A stretch of DNA of 28,146 nucleotides, from positions 1-28,146 of IMG/VR virus record IMGVR_UViG_3300048597_000175; one strand, 5' to 3'. The translations under genes were made by a program, and so were the position numbers. This DNA is from a virus. The notes beneath the pieces were generated by a model. That model did not search any database. It worked only from the letters and a program-made list of their open reading frames with translations, and was not told where the DNA came from. Shown here in pieces: positions 344-18,972 of the stretch. Numbering within the stretch: the first letter of the stretch is position 1; every line of letters begins with the position of its first letter.

Positions 344-557
344 CCTGATGACCGAGGCCGACGTGCTGCGCGACCTGTCGCAGAAATGCGAACTCGCTGG
401 TGGTCAGGCCGCGTGGGCGCAGGTGCACGGCGTGTCGCGGTCGCAGTTGTGCGAGGTCATCGCCGGGCGGCGGTCCATGCCTGAATCCATCGCGAACGCC
501 GCCGGGTATGTGCGCGTGACGCGCTTCGTGCCGATGAGGGGAAAACCGAATGCCTGA
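336..557 (+). CDS. Small helix-turn-helix protein, putative DNA-binding regulator
   Basis: This 73-residue protein overlaps the dnaB stop by 8 bases and gapR by 8 bases, so it is probably translationally coupled to both. Residues about 21-50 (GGQAAWAQVHGVSRSQLCEV, then IAGRRSMPESIANAAGY) resemble the XRE/Cro-like helix-turn-helix seen in small phage proteins of the pattern 'GGQAAWARxHGVSxxxVSxVLxGRRxPG'. A possible second start is the ATG at 348. No other domain is visible. A role as an early-region transcription regulator is inferred from the fold and position only. Confidence 0.75.
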   Translation: MADLMTEADVLRDLSQKCELAGGQAAWAQVHGVSRSQLCEVIAGRRSMPESIANAAGYVRVTRFVPMRGKPNA

Positions 558-3202: not shown

Positions 3203-5177
3203 AGCCGCGACGTGGCTGGCGCGCCTGTTCGCGCACGGCATCCGGCCCGACGCGAAGCGGTCCCTGTCCGAATGGGCCGAGGCGGAGCGCATCGTCGCTG
3301 AGGGCGGCTACCAGGGCCCATGGCGCCATCGCCTGACGCCCTACCTGGTCGAGCCGATGCTCTACGCCGGGCTGAACTGCAAGACGCCGCGGGTGTCGAT
3401 CTGCGGGGGGGCGCAGATCGGCAAGACGCAGGTGGGCGTGAACCTGGCGGGCCAAGTGCTGAGCGAGACGCCCGCGCAGATGATGGTCATGCTGCCCAGC
3501 CTGACCACGCTGCGCGCCTACAACCGCGACAAGCTCGACCGGATGATCCAGGCCACGCCGGCGCTGCAGCGGGCGGTCGCGGATGTGACTGAGCGGTCGG
3601 GCAGCGAATCGACCGTCGCGGTGAAGCGCGGCGCCCGCGGTGCGCAGGTCGAGCTGGTGACCGCCAGCAGCTCGAAGGACCTGCAGATGCGCTCGGTGCG
3701 GGCCGTGCTGATGGAGGAAGTCAGCGAATACGCCCTCGAGGTCGGTGGCCGCGGGTCGCCGATCGACCAGGGGGAGGCGCGCACCTTGGCCTTCCGCAAG
3801 CGCGGCTGGAAGGTCATCAAGATTTCCACCCCCGGCATCAAGGGGGACCCGAAGAACGGCGGCTGCCACATCTCGGCCGAGGTCGAGGCCGGCAGCAACG
3901 GCCGCTTTCATGTCGTCTGCCGTCACTGCAACGAGCTGCACACCCTCGAATTCAGGAACTTGTCCTGGACGAAGGGGCAGCCCGAGACGGTGCGGCACAT
4001 GTGCCCGCACTGCGGCGCCGGCGCGGCCGAGGCCGACAAGGCCTGGATGTGCGACCCGGCGAACGGTGCCCGCTGGATCCACCAGCACCCGGAGCGCCTC
4101 GGCCAACACGCCAGCTTCGGCGGCCTGGGTGCGGTGTATTCGCAGATGCTGCCCTGGTCGGAACTGGCCCGGGCATCCGAGGCGGCCGAGGCCGACCCCG
4201 GCAAGCTGAAGACCTTCACGCAGCAGATGCTGGGTGAGCCCTGGGATGAAGCCTACGACCTGCCGCGGGCGGACATCCTGCTGCTGCGCCGCGACGCCTG
4301 GAAGCGCGGACAGATCCCGCCGGGCGTGCTGTTCCTGGTGGGCGCGACCGACGTGCAGGGCGACCGCCTGGAATGGGCGGTGTGGGGCTTCGACCGGAAC
4401 TTCGGCCAGTGGCTGATCGACACGGGCGTGCTGCCGGGCGACCCGACGCAGCCCGAGGTCTGGCGGGTGCACGACGCGCTGCTGCTGCGACGCTGGACCG
4501 ACGCCTGGGGCAAGGAAATCGCGCCGGACGCCTGGGGCATCGATGCGGGCTACCTGTCCTCGCAGGTGTACGGCTACGCGAGGCGGCACGCGGCGGACGC
4601 CGAGCCGGTGGTTCGCGCGCTCGACCCCCGCGGCGGGTGGCGCCAGCTGCCGATCGGCACGCCCATCGTGCGGGATGTCGACTGGGAAGGCCGCAAGATC
4701 GGCGTGGTGCAGCTCTACCCGGTGGGCACCTGGGACATGAAGTCGGAACTGTCCGCGGCGCTGCGCCTGACCGAGCAGGGCCCGGGGCCGGATGGCTGGC
4801 CGAAGGGTGCGATCCGGTTCAACGAAATCGCCGACCGGCCCTGGATGGATCAGCTGCTGGCCGAGCGCCTGGCGATCAACCCCAAGACCGGGGCGCGGGC
4901 CTGGGTGAAGGTGCAGCCGAGAAACGAGGCCTGGGACCTTGCGGTGTATGCGCGGGCGCAGGCGCGGCACCTGACGGCTGCGATGAACGACGCGCAATGG
5001 GAAGCGCTGGCGGCCCGCCGCCAAGGCCCTGCCGAGGACGTGCAGCAGGACATGGCGGCCCTGTGGTCGCCCGACCTGCGGGCGAAGGTGACGCCGGCAC
5101 CCGCACCGGCGCCTGCGCCCCGCGCGCGCAAGGCGGAGCGGCCCGGCTGGTTCCAGCCTCGGCGGGATTGGTTCTGA
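3177..5177 (+). CDS. terL: Terminase large subunit, GpA family
   Basis: This 666-residue protein is a DNA-packaging motor ATPase and nuclease. Walker A is GGAQIGKT at residues 77-84 and Walker B is VLMEE at 177-181. Cys248, Cys251, Cys276 and Cys279 form a CxxC...CxxC zinc-site pattern, common in GpA-type terminases. The nuclease half has GATDVQGDRLEW (Asp392), WGIDAGY (Asp456) and NEAWDLAVYARA (Asp587), placed as the metal-binding acidic residues of the fold. A Pro/Ala linker, APAPAPAPRA, sits near residue 645. Length is normal for the family. The ATG at 3177 is used because it gives the usual N-terminus, although it lies inside terS. GpA terminases make staggered cos ends in characterised phages. 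Confidence 0.97.
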   Translation: MEPHRQAPEAATWLARLFAHGIRPDAKRSLSEWAEAERIVAEGGYQGPWRHRLTPYLVEPMLYAGLNCKTPRVSICGGAQIGKTQVGVNLAGQVLSETPAQMMVMLPSLTTLRAYNRDKLDRMIQATPALQRAVADVTERSGSESTVAVKRGARGAQVELVTASSSKDLQMRSVRAVLMEEVSEYALEVGGRGSPIDQGEARTLAFRKRGWKVIKISTPGIKGDPKNGGCHISAEVEAGSNGRFHVVCRHCNELHTLEFRNLSWTKGQPETVRHMCPHCGAGAAEADKAWMCDPANGARWIHQHPERLGQHASFGGLGAVYSQMLPWSELARASEAAEADPGKLKTFTQQMLGEPWDEAYDLPRADILLLRRDAWKRGQIPPGVLFLVGATDVQGDRLEWAVWGFDRNFGQWLIDTGVLPGDPTQPEVWRVHDALLLRRWTDAWGKEIAPDAWGIDAGYLSSQVYGYARRHAADAEPVVRALDPRGGWRQLPIGTPIVRDVDWEGRKIGVVQLYPVGTWDMKSELSAALRLTEQGPGPDGWPKGAIRFNEIADRPWMDQLLAERLAINPKTGARAWVKVQPRNEAWDLAVYARAQARHLTAAMNDAQWEALAARRQGPAEDVQQDMAALWSPDLRAKVTPAPAPAPAPRARKAERPGWFQPRRDWF

Positions 5178-10368: not shown

Positions 10369-12318
10369 ATGAAGGGCGTGCAGATGCGCGCAGCAGGCGA
10401 ATCCGCCGTGCTGTCGCTGATGGGCGATGTCGGCTGGGACATCACCCCCAAGGGCGTCGCCGATGCGCTGAAGGGCGCGGGCAAAGGGCCGCTGACGGTC
10501 TCCCTGCATTCCTACGGCGGGGACGCGCTGGCGGGTGTGGCGATCCACAACATGATCGCCCGCCACCCCGGCGCGAAGACCGTCATCATCGAAGGCGTCG
10601 CGGCCTCGGCCGCCAGCCTGATTGCCATGGCCGGCGACCGGATCGTCATGCCGTCCAACGCGCTGATGATGATCCATGAAGCCTGGGGCCTGGCCATGGG
10701 CGACAGCGAGGACATGCGCAAGCAGGCCGACGTGCTCGACACCGTTTCGGGCGCCTACCGCCGCACCTACGCGGCGCGCAGCGGCAAGACCGAGGATGAG
10801 GTCGCGGCGCTGATGGCCGCCGAGACGTGGTTCACCGCCGACGACGCGGTGGCGCAAGGGTTCGCAACCGAGGCGGCCGAGCCCGTCGAAGTGCGCGCCA
10901 TGGCCGTTCCCGACGGTCGCTTCTCTCGGGCGCCGGCGGCACTCGCCGCCTTCGCCCACAACCCGCCGGCGCCGCCGGCCAGCAAGGAGATCCACATGGA
11001 TCCCGTCACCACCGCGGCGCCCAACGCCGCTGCCGATCCGGCGCCGAACACCGGCCCGGTCCCCGCCACCCTCGCGCAGGTGCGCGAGATCGCGACCCGC
11101 GCCAAGCTGCCCGCCGACTGGGTGCTGGCGCAGGTGGAAGCCGCCGCCACGCTCGACGTGGTGCGCGACGCCGCGATCGACGCCGTGGCCGCGGCTGCGC
11201 AGGCCAAGCCGGTGCACACGGCCGTCACGGTCGGCGCCAGCCACGACGACCCGGCCCGCGTGCTGGAAGCGCTGGGCACCGCCATCGCCGTGCGCCACAT
11301 GCCGGCGGTCGCCGCCCGTGCGGGCAACGACCACTGGAAGAAGTTCGCTGGCCTGAAGCCGTCCGACATGCTGCTGGCCCTGGCCGAGGCGCGCGGCGAG
11401 CGTGTCTCCTTCCGCGACCGCGACCGCCTGATCCAGGCCGCCTTCCACACCACCAGCGACTTCCCGCTGCTGCTGGAGAACGCCGGGAACAAGATGCTCC
11501 AGGCCGGCTACGCCGCCGCGACGCCGACCTACCGGTCGTTCTTCGCCGAGCGCGCCTTCGCCGACTTCAAGGCGCACAGCTTCCTGACCGCCGGCGACTT
11601 CCCGGCGCTGGCCGAGCTGGCCGAGGGCGGCGAGATCACCGCCGGCACCATCAACGAGAAGCGCGAGCAGATCACGCCGAAGACCTATGCGCGCCAGGTG
11701 CGCGTGACGCGGCAGATGCTGATCAACGACGACCTCGGCGCCTTCGCCGACTTCGGCACCATGATCGGCCGCCGCGTGGCGGACTACGAGAACGCGCTGG
11801 CCTTCGCGCTGGTCAACACCGCCTCGGGCGCCGGCCCGACGCTCTCGACCGGGTCGCTGGCGGTGTTCAGCACCAACGCCGCGCGGCTCAACCGCGCGTC
11901 GTCGGCCGGTGCCATCACCGAGGCCACGCTGGACGACGGCTATGCCGGCATGATGGCGCAGACCTCCCTGGACAACATCAAGCTGAACCTGATGCCGCGC
12001 ATCCTGCTGACCGGCCCGGCCTACCGTGGCGCCGCCATCCGCTACACCACCGCCATCACGGCGGATGTCGGCGCGAATGTCGGCCTGTACAGCGACCTGA
12101 CGCCGGTGGCGGATGCCAACATCACCGGCAACCGCTGGTATCTGTTCGCCGACCCGGCGGCGGCGCCGGTGTACGTGTACGGGTACGTGAACGGCCAGTC
12201 GGGCCCGATGATCCGGGTGCACCAGTACGTGCCCGGCACCGATGGCTTGGCGGTGGAAGTGCTGCACGACTTCGCGGTCGGCGCCATCGACCACCGCGGC
12301 GGCTGGTTCAACGGCTGA
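10369..12318 (+). CDS. ClpP-like prohead protease fused to major capsid protein
   Basis: One uninterrupted 649-residue frame encodes both maturation protease and capsid subunit. Residues 1-170 form a ClpP/S14-like fold: VSLHSYGGDALAGVAIHNMI, then EGVAASAASLIAMAGD with Ser80 as likely nucleophile, and MMIHEAWG with His103. The third catalytic position, near ETWFTADDAV, appears to be Glu152. Residues 180-330 are an Ala/Pro-rich, partly helical stretch suited to a scaffold or delta domain. The capsid fold covers about 330-649, with the central helix and strand pattern (KTYARQVRVTRQMLINDDLG) typical of HK97-type capsid proteins. A strong Shine-Dalgarno (AGGAGA, 10355-10360) precedes the start. 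Fusions of this kind are known in phages. Confidence 0.92.
   Translation: MKGVQMRAAGESAVLSLMGDVGWDITPKGVADALKGAGKGPLTVSLHSYGGDALAGVAIHNMIARHPGAKTVIIEGVAASAASLIAMAGDRIVMPSNALMMIHEAWGLAMGDSEDMRKQADVLDTVSGAYRRTYAARSGKTEDEVAALMAAETWFTADDAVAQGFATEAAEPVEVRAMAVPDGRFSRAPAALAAFAHNPPAPPASKEIHMDPVTTAAPNAAADPAPNTGPVPATLAQVREIATRAKLPADWVLAQVEAAATLDVVRDAAIDAVAAAAQAKPVHTAVTVGASHDDPARVLEALGTAIAVRHMPAVAARAGNDHWKKFAGLKPSDMLLALAEARGERVSFRDRDRLIQAAFHTTSDFPLLLENAGNKMLQAGYAAATPTYRSFFAERAFADFKAHSFLTAGDFPALAELAEGGEITAGTINEKREQITPKTYARQVRVTRQMLINDDLGAFADFGTMIGRRVADYENALAFALVNTASGAGPTLSTGSLAVFSTNAARLNRASSAGAITEATLDDGYAGMMAQTSLDNIKLNLMPRILLTGPAYRGAAIRYTTAITADVGANVGLYSDLTPVADANITGNRWYLFADPAAAPVYVYGYVNGQSGPMIRVHQYVPGTDGLAVEVLHDFAVGAIDHRGGWFNG
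10984..10998 (+). promoter_or_regulatory. Internal ribosome-binding site and start codon for capsid protein alone
   Basis: AAGGAG at 10984-10989, six bases before ATG 10996, is in frame with the protease-capsid gene at residue 210. It lies exactly at the linker after the protease domain, and the codons before it encode Ser-Lys-Glu-Ile-His. A near-perfect Shine-Dalgarno at ideal spacing at a domain border is unlikely to be accidental. Confidence 0.75.
10996..12318 (+). CDS. Nested product: scaffold region plus major capsid protein, internal start
   Basis: Translation from ATG 10996 would give a 440-residue protein beginning MDPVTTAAPNAAADPAPNTG, lacking the protease. This parallels nested genes such as lambda C/Nu3, where one reading frame gives a protease form and a more abundant form. 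Here the abundant product would be the capsid subunit with its N-terminal scaffold segment, removed later by the protease. This would explain how hundreds of capsid copies can be made with few protease copies. It rests on the internal ribosome site and on the domain border; no direct proof is visible. Confidence 0.6.
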   Translation: MDPVTTAAPNAAADPAPNTGPVPATLAQVREIATRAKLPADWVLAQVEAAATLDVVRDAAIDAVAAAAQAKPVHTAVTVGASHDDPARVLEALGTAIAVRHMPAVAARAGNDHWKKFAGLKPSDMLLALAEARGERVSFRDRDRLIQAAFHTTSDFPLLLENAGNKMLQAGYAAATPTYRSFFAERAFADFKAHSFLTAGDFPALAELAEGGEITAGTINEKREQITPKTYARQVRVTRQMLINDDLGAFADFGTMIGRRVADYENALAFALVNTASGAGPTLSTGSLAVFSTNAARLNRASSAGAITEATLDDGYAGMMAQTSLDNIKLNLMPRILLTGPAYRGAAIRYTTAITADVGANVGLYSDLTPVADANITGNRWYLFADPAAAPVYVYGYVNGQSGPMIRVHQYVPGTDGLAVEVLHDFAVGAIDHRGGWFNG

Positions 12319-12796: not shown

Positions 12797-12831
12797 GGCG
12801 GGGCGGCCTGTGGGGGCCGTCCCGCCACTTT
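12797..12831 (+). terminator. Strong hairpin between decoration gene and glycosyltransferase
   Basis: A 12-bp stem, GGCGGGGCGGCC (12797-12808) with GGCCGTCCCGCC (12815-12826), contains one G-U pair and a 6-base loop, and is followed by ACTTT. It probably lowers read-through from the highly expressed capsid/decoration genes into the glycosyltransferase-methyltransferase pair. Confidence 0.6.
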
Positions 12832-12854
12832 CCTGCCCACACAGGACACCCACC

Positions 12855-13661
12855 ATGACCGACTTCCCGCGCCGCGCCACCGCGCCCGGCGTTCATCCCG
12901 ACGCGCCCGACCTTCCGGCCGCCGACATCCCTATGACCGGCCTGCTGGTCGCCACGCCCATGGCCGGCGGCGGCCTCTGCGACATGGCCTTTTCCAACGG
13001 TATGGACGCGTTGCGCACCGAATGCCTGCGCCGCGGCCTGCGCCTGTCGACCATCTACCTGCGCGGCGAGAGCGACGTGCAGCAGGCGCGCAACCGCTGC
13101 TTCGCGCAGTTCCTGGCATCGCCCGACCATTCGCACCTGCTGTTCATCGACGCGGACATCGGCTTCAGCCCGGATGCGGTGCTGCGCCTGGTCGCGCACA
13201 ACCAGCCGCTGGTCGGCGCCACTTATGCCAAGAAGACGCGCGGGCCGGTGCAGTTCGCGGTCTCCCTGCTGCCGCGGGCGCTGCGCACCGATGCCGGGCT
13301 GGTCGAGGTCAACGGCCTGCCCGGCGGCTTCCTGATGATCCGGCGCGACTGCGCCGAACGCATGGCCGGCGCCTATCGCGACCTGGCCTTCGACCCGCAG
13401 GACGGGCAGGCGGAGGGCGAACCCTGGCGCGCCCACCTGTTCAACATCTTCGGCGCCGAGCTGGCCGAGCGCACCCGCTGGTCGGAGGACATCTCCTTCT
13501 GCCGGCGCTGGACGGCGATCGGCGGCAAGGTGTGGCTCGACCCGTACATCCTGCTCGAGCACTGGGGCATGGCGTGCTTCACGGGCGAACCGGCGGCCAT
13601 GTTCGTGCCGGCCGACGCGCCGGCGCCGCGCGCGGTCGATATGGAAGGTGCGGCGGCATGA
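12855..13661 (+). CDS. Putative glycosyltransferase (GT-A fold)
   Basis: The ATG at 12855 gives 268 residues; the frame stays open from 12810 but without a better start. The core has GLLVATPMAGGGLCDMAF (the nucleotide-sugar entry strand), DVQQARNRCFAQFLASPDHS, and LLFIDADIGFSPDAVLRL with a DAD metal motif at residues 99-101. SEDISFCRRWTAIGGKVWLD at residues 210-229 is the acid-catalyst region, and LEHWG follows. These are the elements of a family-2-like GT-A enzyme. The sugar donor and acceptor cannot be read. It is coupled by ATGA to a methyltransferase gene and sits inside the morphogenesis operon, so modification of a virion protein or of a surface sugar is plausible. Confidence 0.82.
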   Translation: MTDFPRRATAPGVHPDAPDLPAADIPMTGLLVATPMAGGGLCDMAFSNGMDALRTECLRRGLRLSTIYLRGESDVQQARNRCFAQFLASPDHSHLLFIDADIGFSPDAVLRLVAHNQPLVGATYAKKTRGPVQFAVSLLPRALRTDAGLVEVNGLPGGFLMIRRDCAERMAGAYRDLAFDPQDGQAEGEPWRAHLFNIFGAELAERTRWSEDISFCRRWTAIGGKVWLDPYILLEHWGMACFTGEPAAMFVPADAPAPRAVDMEGAAA

Positions 13662-14236
13662 CCGAGTTGCTGATCGGCTGCGGGCACGACCGCACAAAGA
13701 AGCTCGCGCTGCCCGGCCGCACCGAATGGCGCGACCTGGTGACGCTGGACATGAACCCCGCGGCTGGCGCGGACGTGACCTGGGACCTGGCCGACCTGCC
13801 GCTGCCCTTCGCGACGGATTCGGTGGCGGAGATCCACGCCTATGAGGTGCTGGAGCACACCCGGCAGCAGGGCGACTGGCGCGGCTTCTTCGCCGAGTTC
13901 CAGGAGTTCTGGCGCATCCTGAAGCCCGGCGGCACGCTGCACGCCACCTGCCCGGCCTGGCACGGCCCGTGGGCCTGGGGCGATCCCGGCCACACGCGGG
14001 TCATCCAGCCCGAAAGCCTCACCTTCCTGCATCAGCCGGCCTACACCGCCGAATGCGTGCCGGGCGGTTCGCCGCGCACCGACTACCGGCCCTGGTACAC
14101 GGGCGACTTCGACATCGCCTGGATGAACATCCAGCCGGGCGGACAGCTTCCCGCGCAGGGCTTTGCCTTCATCCTGCGCGCGGTGAAGCCCAGCCGCATC
14201 ACGCCGCCCGCCCCGAGGCCGGAGCCCACGCCATGA
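13658..14236 (+). CDS. Class I SAM-dependent methyltransferase
   Basis: This 192-residue protein begins in an ATGA overlap with the glycosyltransferase. A compact motif I (LLIGCGHDRTKK) at residues 4-15 is followed by TLDMNPAA with Asp31 for the SAM ribose, DLADLPLPFATDSVAEIHAY, EVLEH at 63-67 and RILKPGGTLHATCP at 86-99. The order is that of the Rossmann-like methyltransferases acting on small molecules or sugars. No DNA-methylase catalytic motif such as DPPY or PC is present, so DNA methylation is unlikely. It probably acts with its neighbour, for example by capping a glycan, but the substrate is unknown. Its end overlaps the next gene by ATGA. Confidence 0.85.
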   Translation: MTELLIGCGHDRTKKLALPGRTEWRDLVTLDMNPAAGADVTWDLADLPLPFATDSVAEIHAYEVLEHTRQQGDWRGFFAEFQEFWRILKPGGTLHATCPAWHGPWAWGDPGHTRVIQPESLTFLHQPAYTAECVPGGSPRTDYRPWYTGDFDIAWMNIQPGGQLPAQGFAFILRAVKPSRITPPAPRPEPTP

Positions 14237-15591: not shown

Positions 15592-16548
15592 ATGGCGACC
15601 GCGCGCGGTGCGAACACTCGCCTGCTGGCGAAGGAGGAATCGGCCTATGGCACGAACCCCGGCGGGTCCGACTGGGTCCAGTACCCGTTCAACCCGCCGC
15701 TGACCTTCGGCGCCACGCAGGACCTGACGCAGTCGCCGACCATCGGCATCAGCACCAACCGCGACCCGGGCGAGCCCTTCCGGGAGAACGTGACGGTGCC
15801 CCTGTCGGCCGGCCTGCCGATCGACCTCACGCATATCGGCTTCTGGCTGCACAAGCTGTTCGGGGATGCCACCACGACGGGCAGCTCGAACTACACGCAC
15901 GTCTTCAAGTCCGGCACCTTCACTGCGCTGCCGTCCGTCAGCCTCGAGGTCGGGCTGCTGGATCTGCCGCGGTACTTCCTGTACACCGGCGTGAAGGCGA
16001 ACAGCCTGTCGATCACCGCCGCGCCGGGCGGCAAGCCCTCGGCCAGCATCGGCATGATCGCGCAGGACGAAGCCGAGAGCGGCACCAGCGTCGATTCCTC
16101 GCCGACCGTCGCGTCTTCCCTGGTGACCTTCAACAACTACCAGGCGACGCTGTCGCGCGAGGCCACGGCGCTGTCCTACGTGACCGGCTTCGCGCTGAAC
16201 TTCGCGAACAACATCGAGGGCATCCGCGACATCGGGTCGGGCCAGAACATCCGCGAGGCGCTGGAAAGCGACACCAGCATCAGCGGCACCCTGACCGAGC
16301 GCCTGGCCGCCACCACGCTGCTGGCCGACGCGGTGGCCGCCACCTACAAGTCCTTCACCATCCTGTGGGAGATCGGCGCCACGCAGTCGCTGCAGATCGA
16401 CCTGCCCCGGGTGCACCTGCAGCGCGTGCAGAAGACCATCCAGGGCAAGGCCGGCATCGAGATCGGCTGGGCCTGGCAGGCGGAATACGACAGCAGCGCG
16501 GGCGCCGCGCTGGTGGTCACGCTGAAGAACCAGACGGCGAGCTACTGA
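15592..16548 (+). CDS. Major tail tube protein
   Basis: The 318-residue protein follows AAGGAG ten bases upstream of ATG 15592. It starts ATARGANTRLLAKEESAYGT, a hallmark of tube proteins of the Phage_tube_2 type, and continues with beta strands throughout (GVKANSLSITAAPGGKPSAS, then LQIDLPRVHLQRVQKTIQGK). Hexameric rings of this protein stack to form the tail tube. Its position before the tail chaperone pair and tape measure is standard for siphoviruses. No extra C-terminal Ig-like domain is present. The stop overlaps the next start as TGATG. Confidence 0.9.
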   Translation: MATARGANTRLLAKEESAYGTNPGGSDWVQYPFNPPLTFGATQDLTQSPTIGISTNRDPGEPFRENVTVPLSAGLPIDLTHIGFWLHKLFGDATTTGSSNYTHVFKSGTFTALPSVSLEVGLLDLPRYFLYTGVKANSLSITAAPGGKPSASIGMIAQDEAESGTSVDSSPTVASSLVTFNNYQATLSREATALSYVTGFALNFANNIEGIRDIGSGQNIREALESDTSISGTLTERLAATTLLADAVAATYKSFTILWEIGATQSLQIDLPRVHLQRVQKTIQGKAGIEIGWAWQAEYDSSAGAALVVTLKNQTASY

Positions 16549-16940
16549 TGCTGCGCCTGGACATTCCGGCCGAGCCCTTCTGGATCGACGCGCCCTATGG
16601 CGTGCGGCTGCATGTGCGCCCGCTGACCACGGCGCTGAACCACGCCGCCATGGCGCGCGCGGCGCGCCGGCTGCGCGCGCTGCGGGAGGTCTCGCCGGAG
16701 GACCCGCGCCTGACTGACCCGGACGTGGCGGCCGGCGCGCTGCGCGAGGAAGCGACGGTGGCGCTGGGCGAGATCCTGATCCTCGCCTGGGAAGGGGTCG
16801 GCGCGGCCGAGGGCGACGCGGCAGCGCCGGTGACGCCCGAGAACATCCGCAAGCTGCTGGCGGTGCCCGAGATCGAACAGGCCTTCGACCGGGGGCTGGT
16901 CGCGCCGCTGGCGCGTGTCACCGCCGAGGGAAACGCCTGA
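16548..16940 (+). CDS. Tail assembly chaperone (gpG-like)
   Basis: The frame is open far upstream, but the ATG at 16548 is chosen because it couples to the tail tube stop (TGATG). The 130-residue product is mainly helical (LNHAAMARAARRLRALREVS, ALREEATVALGEILILAWEG, PENIRKLLAVPEIEQAFDRG). It fits the gpG chaperone that, with its frameshifted longer form, coats the tape measure during tail assembly. The last codons Ala-Glu-Gly-Asn-Ala lie on a GGGAAAC heptamer that would divert part of the ribosomes to the -1 frame. Confidence 0.85.
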   Translation: MLRLDIPAEPFWIDAPYGVRLHVRPLTTALNHAAMARAARRLRALREVSPEDPRLTDPDVAAGALREEATVALGEILILAWEGVGAAEGDAAAPVTPENIRKLLAVPEIEQAFDRGLVAPLARVTAEGNA

Positions 16941-16974
16941 GGGCCCTTGCCGAGCACCACTTCGGCGGGGGCCC
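16928..16974 (+). promoter_or_regulatory. Programmed -1 ribosomal frameshift signal
   Basis: The slippery heptamer G GGA AAC spans 16928-16934 in the zero frame of the chaperone gene, four codons from its stop. A 6-base spacer (GCCTGA) is followed by a stem: 16941-16953 (GGGCCCTTGCCGA) pairs with 16962-16974 (TCGGCGGGGGCCC) as 13 bp including two G-U pairs, with loop GCACCACT. A shift to -1 continues as Arg-Leu-Arg into the downstream open frame to 17266. The heptamer, spacer length and stem fit the rules known for -1 frameshift sites, and lambda G-T uses GGGAAAG. Confidence 0.9.
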
Positions 16975-17266
16975 GGAATACTGCGCGGGCTGCGGCCACC
17001 TGGCCGGCAAGGCCTGTGACGAATGCCCGTACACGACCGAGCAGCCGCACACCGCCGATGGCGTGGCGGCCTGGCAGGCGGGCAGCCGGTGCCTGGCGGT
17101 GGCGCTGGGCTATGGCGCGGCGGATGTGCGGATGGACTGGTCGGCGGCCTTCCAGGTGGCGGTGGCCGAGGGGTGCGACCCGCGCGTGGCGGGCGAGCTG
17201 TTGCGCGCGGTGGCGGATGGCATGGCCGCGGGCCGCGCCAGGATGAAGGAAGGGCAGGGCGCATGA
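16934..17266 (+). CDS. Tail assembly chaperone frameshift extension (gpGT-like T part)
   Basis: Read in the -1 frame from 16934, this gives about 110 residues beginning RLRALAEHHFGGGPEYCAGC and ending GRARMKEGQGA, stop at 17266. There is no ATG at its start; the first, at 17063, would remove the N-terminal third. It should therefore be made as a fusion with the preceding protein. It carries CAGC and CDEC within 14 residues (YCAGCGHLAGKACDECPY), a likely zinc-binding knuckle, and then a helical part. In lambda the T extension recruits the tail tube or tape measure. The tape measure start overlaps the stop as ATGA. Confidence 0.82.
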   Translation, partial: RLRALAEHHFGGGPEYCAGCGHLAGKACDECPYTTEQPHTADGVAAWQAGSRCLAVALGYGAADVRMDWSAAFQVAVAEGCDPRVAGELLRAVADGMAAGRARMKEGQGA

Positions 17267-18972
17267 GCGGCAGCAGGGGCGGGTCGTCGAACTTCGGCGT
17301 GCGGCTGTCGGTGGACGGCGCCGAGGCGGTCGAGGCCAGCCTGCGCCGCGTGCAGACCACGGCCGCGCAGGTGGGCCAGGAAGTCTCCCGCGCCGGCGAC
17401 AGCACGGGCCGCGCCCTGGCGGTGATCGAGCGTGGCACGCAGGCGGCGTCAACGGGTCTCACGAAGCTGGGGGGCGACTTCGCCGCGCTGGCGCCGGTGG
17501 TGGACACGGCTGGCGGGGCGATCGGCCGGCTGGTGACGGCGCTGGGCGCTGGGACCGGGCTGCTGGGCGTGGTCGGGGCGGTCAGTGCCGTCGTGGGTGC
17601 CGCGGTCGCCGTCTACCAGAACTGGGATTCCGTGACCCGCGCGGTGGCCGGCAGCATGGACGTGCTGACCGGGCGGGTGCGGGCCGTGCGCGCCGAGCTC
17701 CAATCGACCTATGACCTTCTGAACCAGCTGAATGGGATCGTGCCGCAGGCGGCCAGCACTTCGGCGCGAGGCGCGATCGAGCAGATCGACGGCCGCGCCA
17801 ATCCCATCCGTGAGCGCATCGCTGAAAACGAACGGCGCCTTGCAGCGGCGCGGGCCGGTGGCGGCGCCGCGGCGATCGTCAACCGGGGCGGCGCTTCCGG
17901 GCTGGTGCCAACGGACGACTTCGCGCGAGACCTCGATCGCCGGGTGATCGAGCGCCAGCAGCGCCAGCAGGCTGATCGCGCCGCTGAAATCGAGCGTGAG
18001 CTCAGTGCCGACCGGGCGGCGCTGGCCGACCTTGAGCGTGCCCGCGTGCGCCAGCAGGGCATCATTGTCGCCGCAGAGGAAAATGTCGGGTCGGTCACCC
18101 GCCCGCCGCCGGAGGACACGCCGGCGGCGCGGACTGCGCGAGGCGGCGGTGGTGGCGGCGCAGCGCGGCCCGTGCGCGATGACCTCGGCGGCCGGCGCGA
18201 CGCCTTCCTGACGCAGAACGACCCCTTCGAACGCTACGCCGCGACCCTGTCGCGCATCGGCCAGCTGCAGGCCGACCTCGCCGCGGCCGGGCAATCCCCG
18301 CTGCCCGACGAAGCCGTGGTGCGCGCCACCGAACAGGCGATGCAGGACTATGAGCGCGCGCTGTCCGGCGCCGGCGCCAGCACGCGGGACCTGGCCGACG
18401 GCACCAAGGAATGGGAACGCGCCAGCCAGGGCGCGGCCAAGGCGCTGACCGGCGCCTTCGAAGACCTGGTGTTCGAGGGGCAGTCCTTCGATGACGTGCT
18501 GAAGAACCTCGAGCGGTCGCTGCTGCGCATCGGCAACCAGGTGCTGCTGCAGCCGCTGATCCAAAGCGGCTTCTCGGCGCTGTTTGGCGGCGGTGGCGGC
18601 AACCTGAACAACGGCGGCACCAGCGGAATCGGCGGGCTGATCGGCCAGGGCGTGGGCTTCCTGTCCAGCCTGGTGGCGCACGACGGCGCGCTGGTGGGCG
18701 CTGGCGGCGGGCACCACCGCATGGTGCCGGCCTCCTTGTTCGCCGGTGCGCCGCGCTTCCATGGCGGCGGCATCATCGGCCCGAACGAAGTCCCGGCCAT
18801 CCTCGAGCGCGGGGAGCGCGTGCTCAGCCGCGCCCAGGCTGCCGCCTACAGCCGCGGCGGCGGCGTGACCGTGAACATCAGCACGCCCGATGCCGGGTCC
18901 TTCCGCAATTCGCAGGGGCAGATCATGTCGACCATGGCCGCCGCGCTGGCACGTTCGGGCCGGAACCGCTGA
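17263..18972 (+). CDS. Tail tape measure protein (lambda-type C-terminus)
   Basis: ATG 17263, coupled by ATGA, gives 569 residues. Residues about 86-122 form a long hydrophobic segment (LVTALGAGTGLLGVVGAVSA, then VVGAAVAVYQNW). About 140-290 is a charged coiled coil (RRVIERQQRQQADRAAEIER). The C-terminus has AFEDLVFEGQSFDDVLKNLE, NQVLLQPLIQSGFSALFGGG and FHGGGIIGPNEVPAILERGE, the signature of lambda-type tape measure C-termini. The tape measure sets tail length and passes to the tail tip. At roughly 1.5 angstrom per residue it would suit a tail of about 85 nm, short for a siphovirus. An alternative start is not evident. Confidence 0.93.
   Translation: MSGSRGGSSNFGVRLSVDGAEAVEASLRRVQTTAAQVGQEVSRAGDSTGRALAVIERGTQAASTGLTKLGGDFAALAPVVDTAGGAIGRLVTALGAGTGLLGVVGAVSAVVGAAVAVYQNWDSVTRAVAGSMDVLTGRVRAVRAELQSTYDLLNQLNGIVPQAASTSARGAIEQIDGRANPIRERIAENERRLAAARAGGGAAAIVNRGGASGLVPTDDFARDLDRRVIERQQRQQADRAAEIERELSADRAALADLERARVRQQGIIVAAEENVGSVTRPPPEDTPAARTARGGGGGGAARPVRDDLGGRRDAFLTQNDPFERYAATLSRIGQLQADLAAAGQSPLPDEAVVRATEQAMQDYERALSGAGASTRDLADGTKEWERASQGAAKALTGAFEDLVFEGQSFDDVLKNLERSLLRIGNQVLLQPLIQSGFSALFGGGGGNLNNGGTSGIGGLIGQGVGFLSSLVAHDGALVGAGGGHHRMVPASLFAGAPRFHGGGIIGPNEVPAILERGERVLSRAQAAAYSRGGGVTVNISTPDAGSFRNSQGQIMSTMAAALARSGRNR

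What the first reader, a model, noticed from the sequence alone, without database searches (positions are those of the whole stretch)
16928..16974. Complete -1 frameshift signal joining the two tail chaperone frames
The sequence shows a canonical slippery heptamer, G GGA AAC, in the zero frame four codons before the stop at 16940. It is followed by a 6-base spacer and then a 13-bp stem (two G-U pairs) with an 8-base loop. The -1 frame is open from there to 17266, lacks a credible start of its own and encodes a CxxC...CxxC protein. All parts agree with the lambda G-GT system by position, while the T part is unlike lambda T in carrying a zinc-knuckle pattern.
Basis: partly seen in the sequence, partly recalled or inferred. 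Interest (0 to 1): 0.72.

Follow-up and report, generated by a model that had tools for sequence, protein, structure and literature searches.

The report
Tail-chaperone ribosomal frameshift with four-cysteine extension
This phage makes a longer form of its tail-building helper protein by having ribosomes slip back one base at a marked spot, a mechanism known from many tailed phages, and the added piece belongs to a widespread family with four invariant metal-binding-type cysteines that databases seem to hold only as a truncated 'unknown' domain.

Summary
A canonical -1 heptamer, G GGA AAC (16928-16934), lies in the zero frame of the tail assembly chaperone gene (16548-16940). It is followed by a 6-nt spacer and a 13-14 bp hairpin (16941-16974, -28.9 kcal/mol). 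The -1 frame, open to 17266, has no start codon before the conserved domain.

Comparison strongly supports a programmed frameshift. I recovered homologous loci by T-protein similarity, 60 after de-duplication. All 58 with an unmasked site carry a slippery sequence at the same codon: 40 AAAAAAC, 13 GGGAAAC, 4 AAAAAAA(G), one GGGGGAA (itself a published phage slippery motif). A second set found through a neighbouring gene gives 37 of 37. The hairpin is kept beyond what the protein demands, covaries, and occurs in two registers tracked by synonymous glycine codons.

This is a new member of the lambda G-GT class. Rhodobacter phage relatives already carry a joined CDS; the same heptamers are published for Caulobacter phages. 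The interesting remainder is the T part: a four-cysteine family whose C-terminal half is listed as DUF7697 / phrog_11212, unknown function, probably truncated models because the upstream half has no start codon. Frameshift efficiency and zinc binding are untested.

The parts
16548..16940 (+). G: tail assembly chaperone, zero-frame product (130 aa)
   Evidence: phrog_313 tail assembly chaperone E 8.2e-9; relatives to 1e-24; AlphaFold pLDDT 92.6
16928..16934 (+). Slippery heptamer G GGA AAC
   Evidence: Sequence; slippery sequence kept in 58 of 58 legible lineages and 37 of 37 of an independent set
16935..16940 (+). 6-nt spacer containing the zero-frame stop TGA (16938-16940)
   Evidence: 15 of 60 lineages have the stop at this place
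16941..16974 (+). Stimulatory hairpin, 14 bp, arms 16941-16954 and 16961-16974
   Evidence: RNAfold -28.9 kcal/mol; covariation; synonymous-recoding test
16931..17266 (+). T: -1 frame extension (110 aa after the shift) with C4 motif, stop TGA 17264-17266
   Evidence: Translation; 59-member family with invariant cysteines; DUF7697-like C-terminal half, sub-threshold in the window itself (E 0.005) but 56 of 59 members match
16982..17026 (+). CxxC-x7-CxxC motif (T residues 18-32)
   Evidence: C18, C21, C29, C32 invariant in 52 homologues
15592..16548 (+). Tail tube protein, upstream neighbour
   Evidence: PF18906 Phage_tube_2 E 7.8e-39
17263..18972 (+). Tape measure protein, downstream neighbour, ATG overlaps the T stop
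   Evidence: phrog_2335 tape measure 1.7e-18; NF058675 RcGTA_tape 3.9e-12, below its cut-off

Best explanation
[quoted passage not shown] Most ribosomes stop at 16940 and make G (130 aa). A minority pause at the hairpin with tRNAs on GGA and AAC, slip back one base to GGG and AAA, and continue at CGC to make a 239-aa G-T fusion. By analogy with lambda, G coats the tape measure protein and the T extension recruits the tail tube subunit. The four cysteines of T most likely form a structural metal (zinc) site. Shown here: anatomy, conservation and RNA-level selection. Inferred: slippage itself, its rate, the roles of G and G-T, and zinc binding.
For: Heptamer in phase, spacer, stable hairpin, startless -1 frame. 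Position between tail tube and tape measure genes. G matches tail assembly chaperone families. A slippery sequence stands at the same codon in 58 of 58 legible lineages although its letters change (GGGAAAC, AAAAAAC, AAAAAAAG, GGGGGAA), and in 37 of 37 loci found independently. The stem covaries and is more stable than synonymous recodings, and two stem registers are tracked by synonymous Gly codons (Fisher 5e-8 and 6e-8). Substitutions against the nearest relative L169 favour third codon positions of the T frame (11/14/25). Rhodobacter phages annotate a joined CDS here.
Against: No protein, ribosome-profiling or reporter data. The A-site codon AAC is described as mammalian-like rather than typical of E. 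coli sites (PMC5009743), so efficiency in the host is uncertain. Lineages are not phylogenetically independent. A minority of relatives have weak hairpins (for example L064, L023, L162).
Confidence: 0.94

Rival explanations
1. T is a separate protein started inside its own frame (re-initiation after the G stop, or an internal start), as in RcGTA-type clusters where two overlapping genes take the same place.
For: RcGTA-type clusters L177 and L179 have two separate ORFs, the second with its own ATG. Pfam DUF7697 and phrog_11212 models cover only the part of T after internal start-like codons, as gene callers would give it.
Against: No ATG/GTG/TTG in the open T frame upstream (72 codons) or in the first 30 codons in the window. 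59 of 60 lineages have none in those first 30 codons, and the conserved C4 motif lies in exactly that startless stretch. It would not explain the slippery site and stem.
Confidence: 0.03
2. The -1 product arises from transcriptional slippage on homopolymer runs rather than from ribosomal slippage.
For: Most relatives have runs of 7-8 A.
Against: The window, L169 and the other GGGAAAC lineages have only three G and three A. The stem downstream is under selection, as expected for ribosomes.
Confidence: 0.01
3. The two frames are one gene broken by an assembly or sequencing indel, and the heptamer is a coincidence.
For: The window is a single metagenomic virus record with no near match among phage records.
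Against: The same split stands at the same codon in 58 independently assembled lineages. An in-frame heptamer in the overlap is expected 0.017 times.
Confidence: 0.01

Closest known systems
Lambda G / G-T -1 frameshift and its relatives in dsDNA tailed phages (Levin 1993; Xu 2004; reviewed in PMC5009743)
   Same: Position between tail tube and tape measure genes, X XXY YYZ heptamer near the end of G, startless -1 frame, two chaperone forms
   Different: Heptamer GGGAAAC instead of GGGAAAG; strong conserved hairpin; T part is a C4 protein without a match to a tail-T family
Joined tail assembly chaperone CDS of Rhodobacter phages RcKemmy, RcBaka and relatives
   Same: Homologous T (about 30% identity), same heptamer in the same codons, stem at the same place, joined CDS annotated
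   Different: The zero frame runs about 30 codons further there; in the window it stops 3 nt after the heptamer
Caulobacter phages phiCbK (AAAAAAC) and Colossus (GGGAAAC); Burkholderia phage KL1 (GGGAAAC just before TGA)
   Same: Same slippery heptamers in pre-tape-measure chaperone genes (PMC3556154, PMC3483164)
   Different: Homology of their T parts to this one was not tested
DUF7697 (PF24752) / phrog_11212 and DUF1799 (PF08809)
   Same: DUF7697 and phrog_11212 match the C-terminal half of T in 56 and 53 of 59 members; DUF1799 matches 10 members, best 2e-6
   Different: These models lack the C4 half and carry no function; none of them mentions a frameshift in the output seen here
RcGTA-type tail cluster
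   Same: Downstream tail genes (tape measure C-terminus, DUF2460) are related
   Different: Two separate overlapping chaperone-position ORFs, the second with its own ATG; no C4 T

Membership tests
Tail assembly chaperone -1 frameshift class (lambda G-GT type) | Gene lies between the tail tube and the tape measure genes | tested here: met
   Phage_tube_2 upstream, tape measure downstream
Tail assembly chaperone -1 frameshift class (lambda G-GT type) | Zero-frame product is a tail assembly chaperone | tested here: met
   phrog_313 E 8.2e-9, relatives to 1e-24; HK97 chaperone 2OB9 is only an insignificant fold match
Tail assembly chaperone -1 frameshift class (lambda G-GT type) | X XXY YYZ in phase inside the overlap of the two frames | tested here: met
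   conserved
Tail assembly chaperone -1 frameshift class (lambda G-GT type) | Downstream frame lacks its own start | tested here: met
Tail assembly chaperone -1 frameshift class (lambda G-GT type) | Two products made from one start in a fixed ratio | not testable with these tools
   Needs reporter or mass spectrometry
Lambda T / tail-T protein family | Sequence match of the -1 product to a tail-T family | tested here: not met
   No tail-T family among Pfam matches of 59 members
DUF7697 (PF24752) | Pfam match above the gathering score | tested here: inconclusive
   Window T 17.2 bits against cut-off 27, but 56 of 59 homologues match at E <= 0.01, several well above the cut-off
Zinc-binding C4 domain | Conserved CxxC pairs | tested here: met
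   C18, C21, C29, C32 invariant in 52
Zinc-binding C4 domain | Metal bound | not testable with these tools
   No solved homologue

The most novel reading that the evidence does not exclude
The frameshift extension is a distinct, unrecognised class of tail-chaperone T domain: a C4 metal-binding module joined to a DUF7697 C-terminal half, widespread in phages and prophages of Alphaproteobacteria and made almost only by -1 frameshifting. DUF7697 and phrog_11212 are truncated gene models of it, and the most conserved protein motif doubles as an RNA stem that exists in two synonymous registers.
Probability: 0.5. Interest if true: 0.42.

Novelty: new member of a known kind. Interest (0 to 1): 0.27.

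Why it matters
It supports the lambda-type chaperone frameshift in a large, poorly annotated set of alphaproteobacterial phages and prophages. It suggests a role (T domain of the tail chaperone) for a Pfam and a PHROGs family now listed as unknown, and gives a reason why gene callers would cut them: the conserved half has no start codon. The family is also a natural data set for studying slippery-site choice (AAC in the A site, GGG or AAA in the P site) and stems that must serve protein and RNA at once.

Tried and rejected
A single-protein scan with T found nothing in IMG/VR or GTDB; an alignment was needed. G alone has no tblastn match in phage records. PDB fold searches gave no significant match for T or G. 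BFVD for T gave only insignificant hits, some to tape measure chaperones of T5-like phages. Rfam has nothing at the site. L127 first looked like a counterexample (heptamer lost, both frames intact), but its GGGGGAA in the frame G GGG GAA matches the published 'fivetwo' motif. L102 and L109 have masked bases in the site and were left out. Chance, indel error, internal initiation and transcriptional slippage were considered and rejected as stated. A pseudoknot between loop and downstream sequence was not examined.

Full report
What is there. The window is a 28,146-base virus record. Its + strand carries terminase, portal, capsid-region, tail tube, tape measure and RcGTA-like tail genes. Between tail tube (15592-16548) and tape measure (17263-18972) lies a 130-codon ORF (16548-16940) that matches PHROG 313, tail assembly chaperone, with E 8.2e-9. 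Near its end stands G GGA AAC (16928-16934), then GCC TGA. Six nucleotides after the heptamer begins a hairpin that RNAfold draws as 14 bp with a 6-nt loop (-28.9 kcal/mol, z -3.6, no shuffle as stable). The -1 frame runs from there to 17266 and has no start codon in its 72 open upstream codons or in the next 30.

Is it more than chance? The bare heptamer is not unusual in the window (4 against 2.1 expected). In phase it is: two sites in 8829 codon positions of the proposed CDSs, so 0.017 expected in the 74 codons where both frames are open. The hairpin is also more stable than 99% of recodings that keep the T protein (z -3.07). In the window these recodings are a fair control, because the zero frame ends before the stem.

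Relatives. tblastn of T in phage records gave eleven Rhodobacter phages (about 30% identity), two cyanophages and two gut contigs. RcKemmy and RcBaka annotate a joined CDS 'tail assembly chaperone' here, and their DNA has G GGA AAC in the same codons. A small alignment then reached 160 more loci in IMG/VR and GTDB genomes; the titled genomes are mostly Alphaproteobacteria. The search pattern lay downstream of the heptamer, so it did not select for it. After de-duplication 60 remain, the window included: 40 AAAAAAC, 13 GGGAAAC, 4 AAAAAAA followed by G, 2 with masked bases, and one GGGGGAA. The last (L127) is read G GGG GAA, the frame implied for the 'fivetwo' GGGGGAA motif that PRFect found in about a thousand actinobacteriophage sites (PMC10885494). 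A second set was found through the downstream DUF2460 protein. It contains 37 loci with T, and all have a heptamer: 30 AAAAAAC and 7 GGGAAAC.

Why this is RNA-level selection. In the accepted tandem-slippage model the fusion receives the residue of the zero-frame YYZ codon and then resumes at Z, so the nominal first codon of T (AAA, 'Lys') is not decoded as such. Yet it is AAA in all 57 X XXY YYZ lineages, where AAA is 31% of Lys codons. In the 13 GGGAAAC lineages the codon before it is always GGG, which is 20% of Gly codons. These products of frequencies ignore shared descent and are only indicative.

The stem. Homologues align without gaps through the stem because the protein motif KRLxALAEWHFGGG has fixed length. 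In 38 lineages with Leu at codon 6 the window's pairs are standard in 93% of cells, with a covariation score above all 500 shuffles and above all slid controls. In the window the pair 16942-16973 is G-C where most relatives have C-G. In 21 lineages codon 6 is Arg. There the 3' arm shifts register with one bulged base (folds), and the synonymous glycine codons 13 and 14 change from GGG GGC to GGC GGG (Fisher 5e-8 and 6e-8). Over all lineages, stems are more stable than synonymous recodings (mean z -2.35, 45 of 60 at or below 5%; 12 of the 15 with the early stop). The closest relative, L169 (78% nt identity over G-T), keeps the heptamer and differs in 3 of 47 bases of site plus stem, one change strengthening a G-U pair to C-G and one breaking a U-G pair.

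The T protein. In 52 aligned homologues C18, C21, C29, C32, H10 and W48 are invariant. AlphaFold gives a confident model (mean pLDDT 90, lower around the cysteines, 69-78): N-terminal helices, the C4 loop, a beta hairpin and a long C-terminal helix, with no significant match in the PDB or BFVD. DUF7697 (52 aa) and phrog_11212 (55 aa), both of unknown function, cover only residues from about 57 to the end in relatives and match 56 and 53 of 59 members. The simple reading is that gene callers started at an internal codon because the upstream half has none. DUF1799, which sits between tail assembly chaperone and tape measure genes in Variovorax phage VarioGold (PMC9658991), matches 10 members (best 2e-6) and is probably a distant relative.

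Mechanism and standing. The arrangement works like lambda G/G-T, where gpG and gpGT bind the tape measure protein and the T part recruits the tail tube protein, with a molar ratio of 30:1 described as crucial (PMC5009743). Membership in the tail-chaperone frameshift class is met for every feature testable by sequence. T is not a recognisable member of a tail-T family. AAAAAAC and GGGAAAC were already reported for Caulobacter phages phiCbK and Colossus (PMC3556154), and GGGAAAC just before a TGA for Burkholderia phage KL1 (PMC3483164). The Rhodobacter phage paper implies that most of its phages carry this frameshift (PMC8601537). The finding is therefore real and ordinary in kind. What it adds is the C4 T family, the likely correction of two 'unknown' families, and the two-register stem.

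Limits. Lineages are related, so counts are not independent. Codon usage came from long open frames of each locus and may include wrong frames. 45 of 60 lineages have a longer zero-frame tail over the stem, so the synonymous test is cleanest in the other 15. No protein or ribosome data exist here. Zinc binding and the efficiency of an AAC A-site codon in the host are unknown.

Noticed in passing
window 10369-12318: One 649-codon ORF reads like a ClpP/S49-type protease followed by a major capsid protein in a single frame, a protease-capsid fusion (judged from its translation only).
   Followed up: no
window 12810-14236: Two genes in the structural region read like a glycosyltransferase and a SAM-dependent methyltransferase, between the capsid region and the tail terminator; an unusual place for such genes.
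   Followed up: no
window 539-545: The only other in-frame X XXY YYZ in the proposed CDSs is GGGAAAA near the end of the ORF 336-557, shortly before the next ORF at 550.
   Followed up: no
L177 and L179 (about 3750-4330), RcGTA-type clusters: In the chaperone position these clusters carry two separate ORFs, the second with its own ATG (overlapping in L177), and no C4 T part: a non-frameshift solution in related tail modules.
   Followed up: partly
L168 1369-1650: A locus 66% identical in DUF2460 carries a different, cysteine-poor small ORF before a different, longer tape measure gene: the chaperone-tape measure module may be exchanged as a unit.
   Followed up: no
L127 2471-2480: A lineage in which the heptamer is replaced by GGGGGAA, the 'fivetwo' slippery motif of actinobacteriophages, with the T family otherwise intact: a natural swap of slippery type at one site.
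   Followed up: partly
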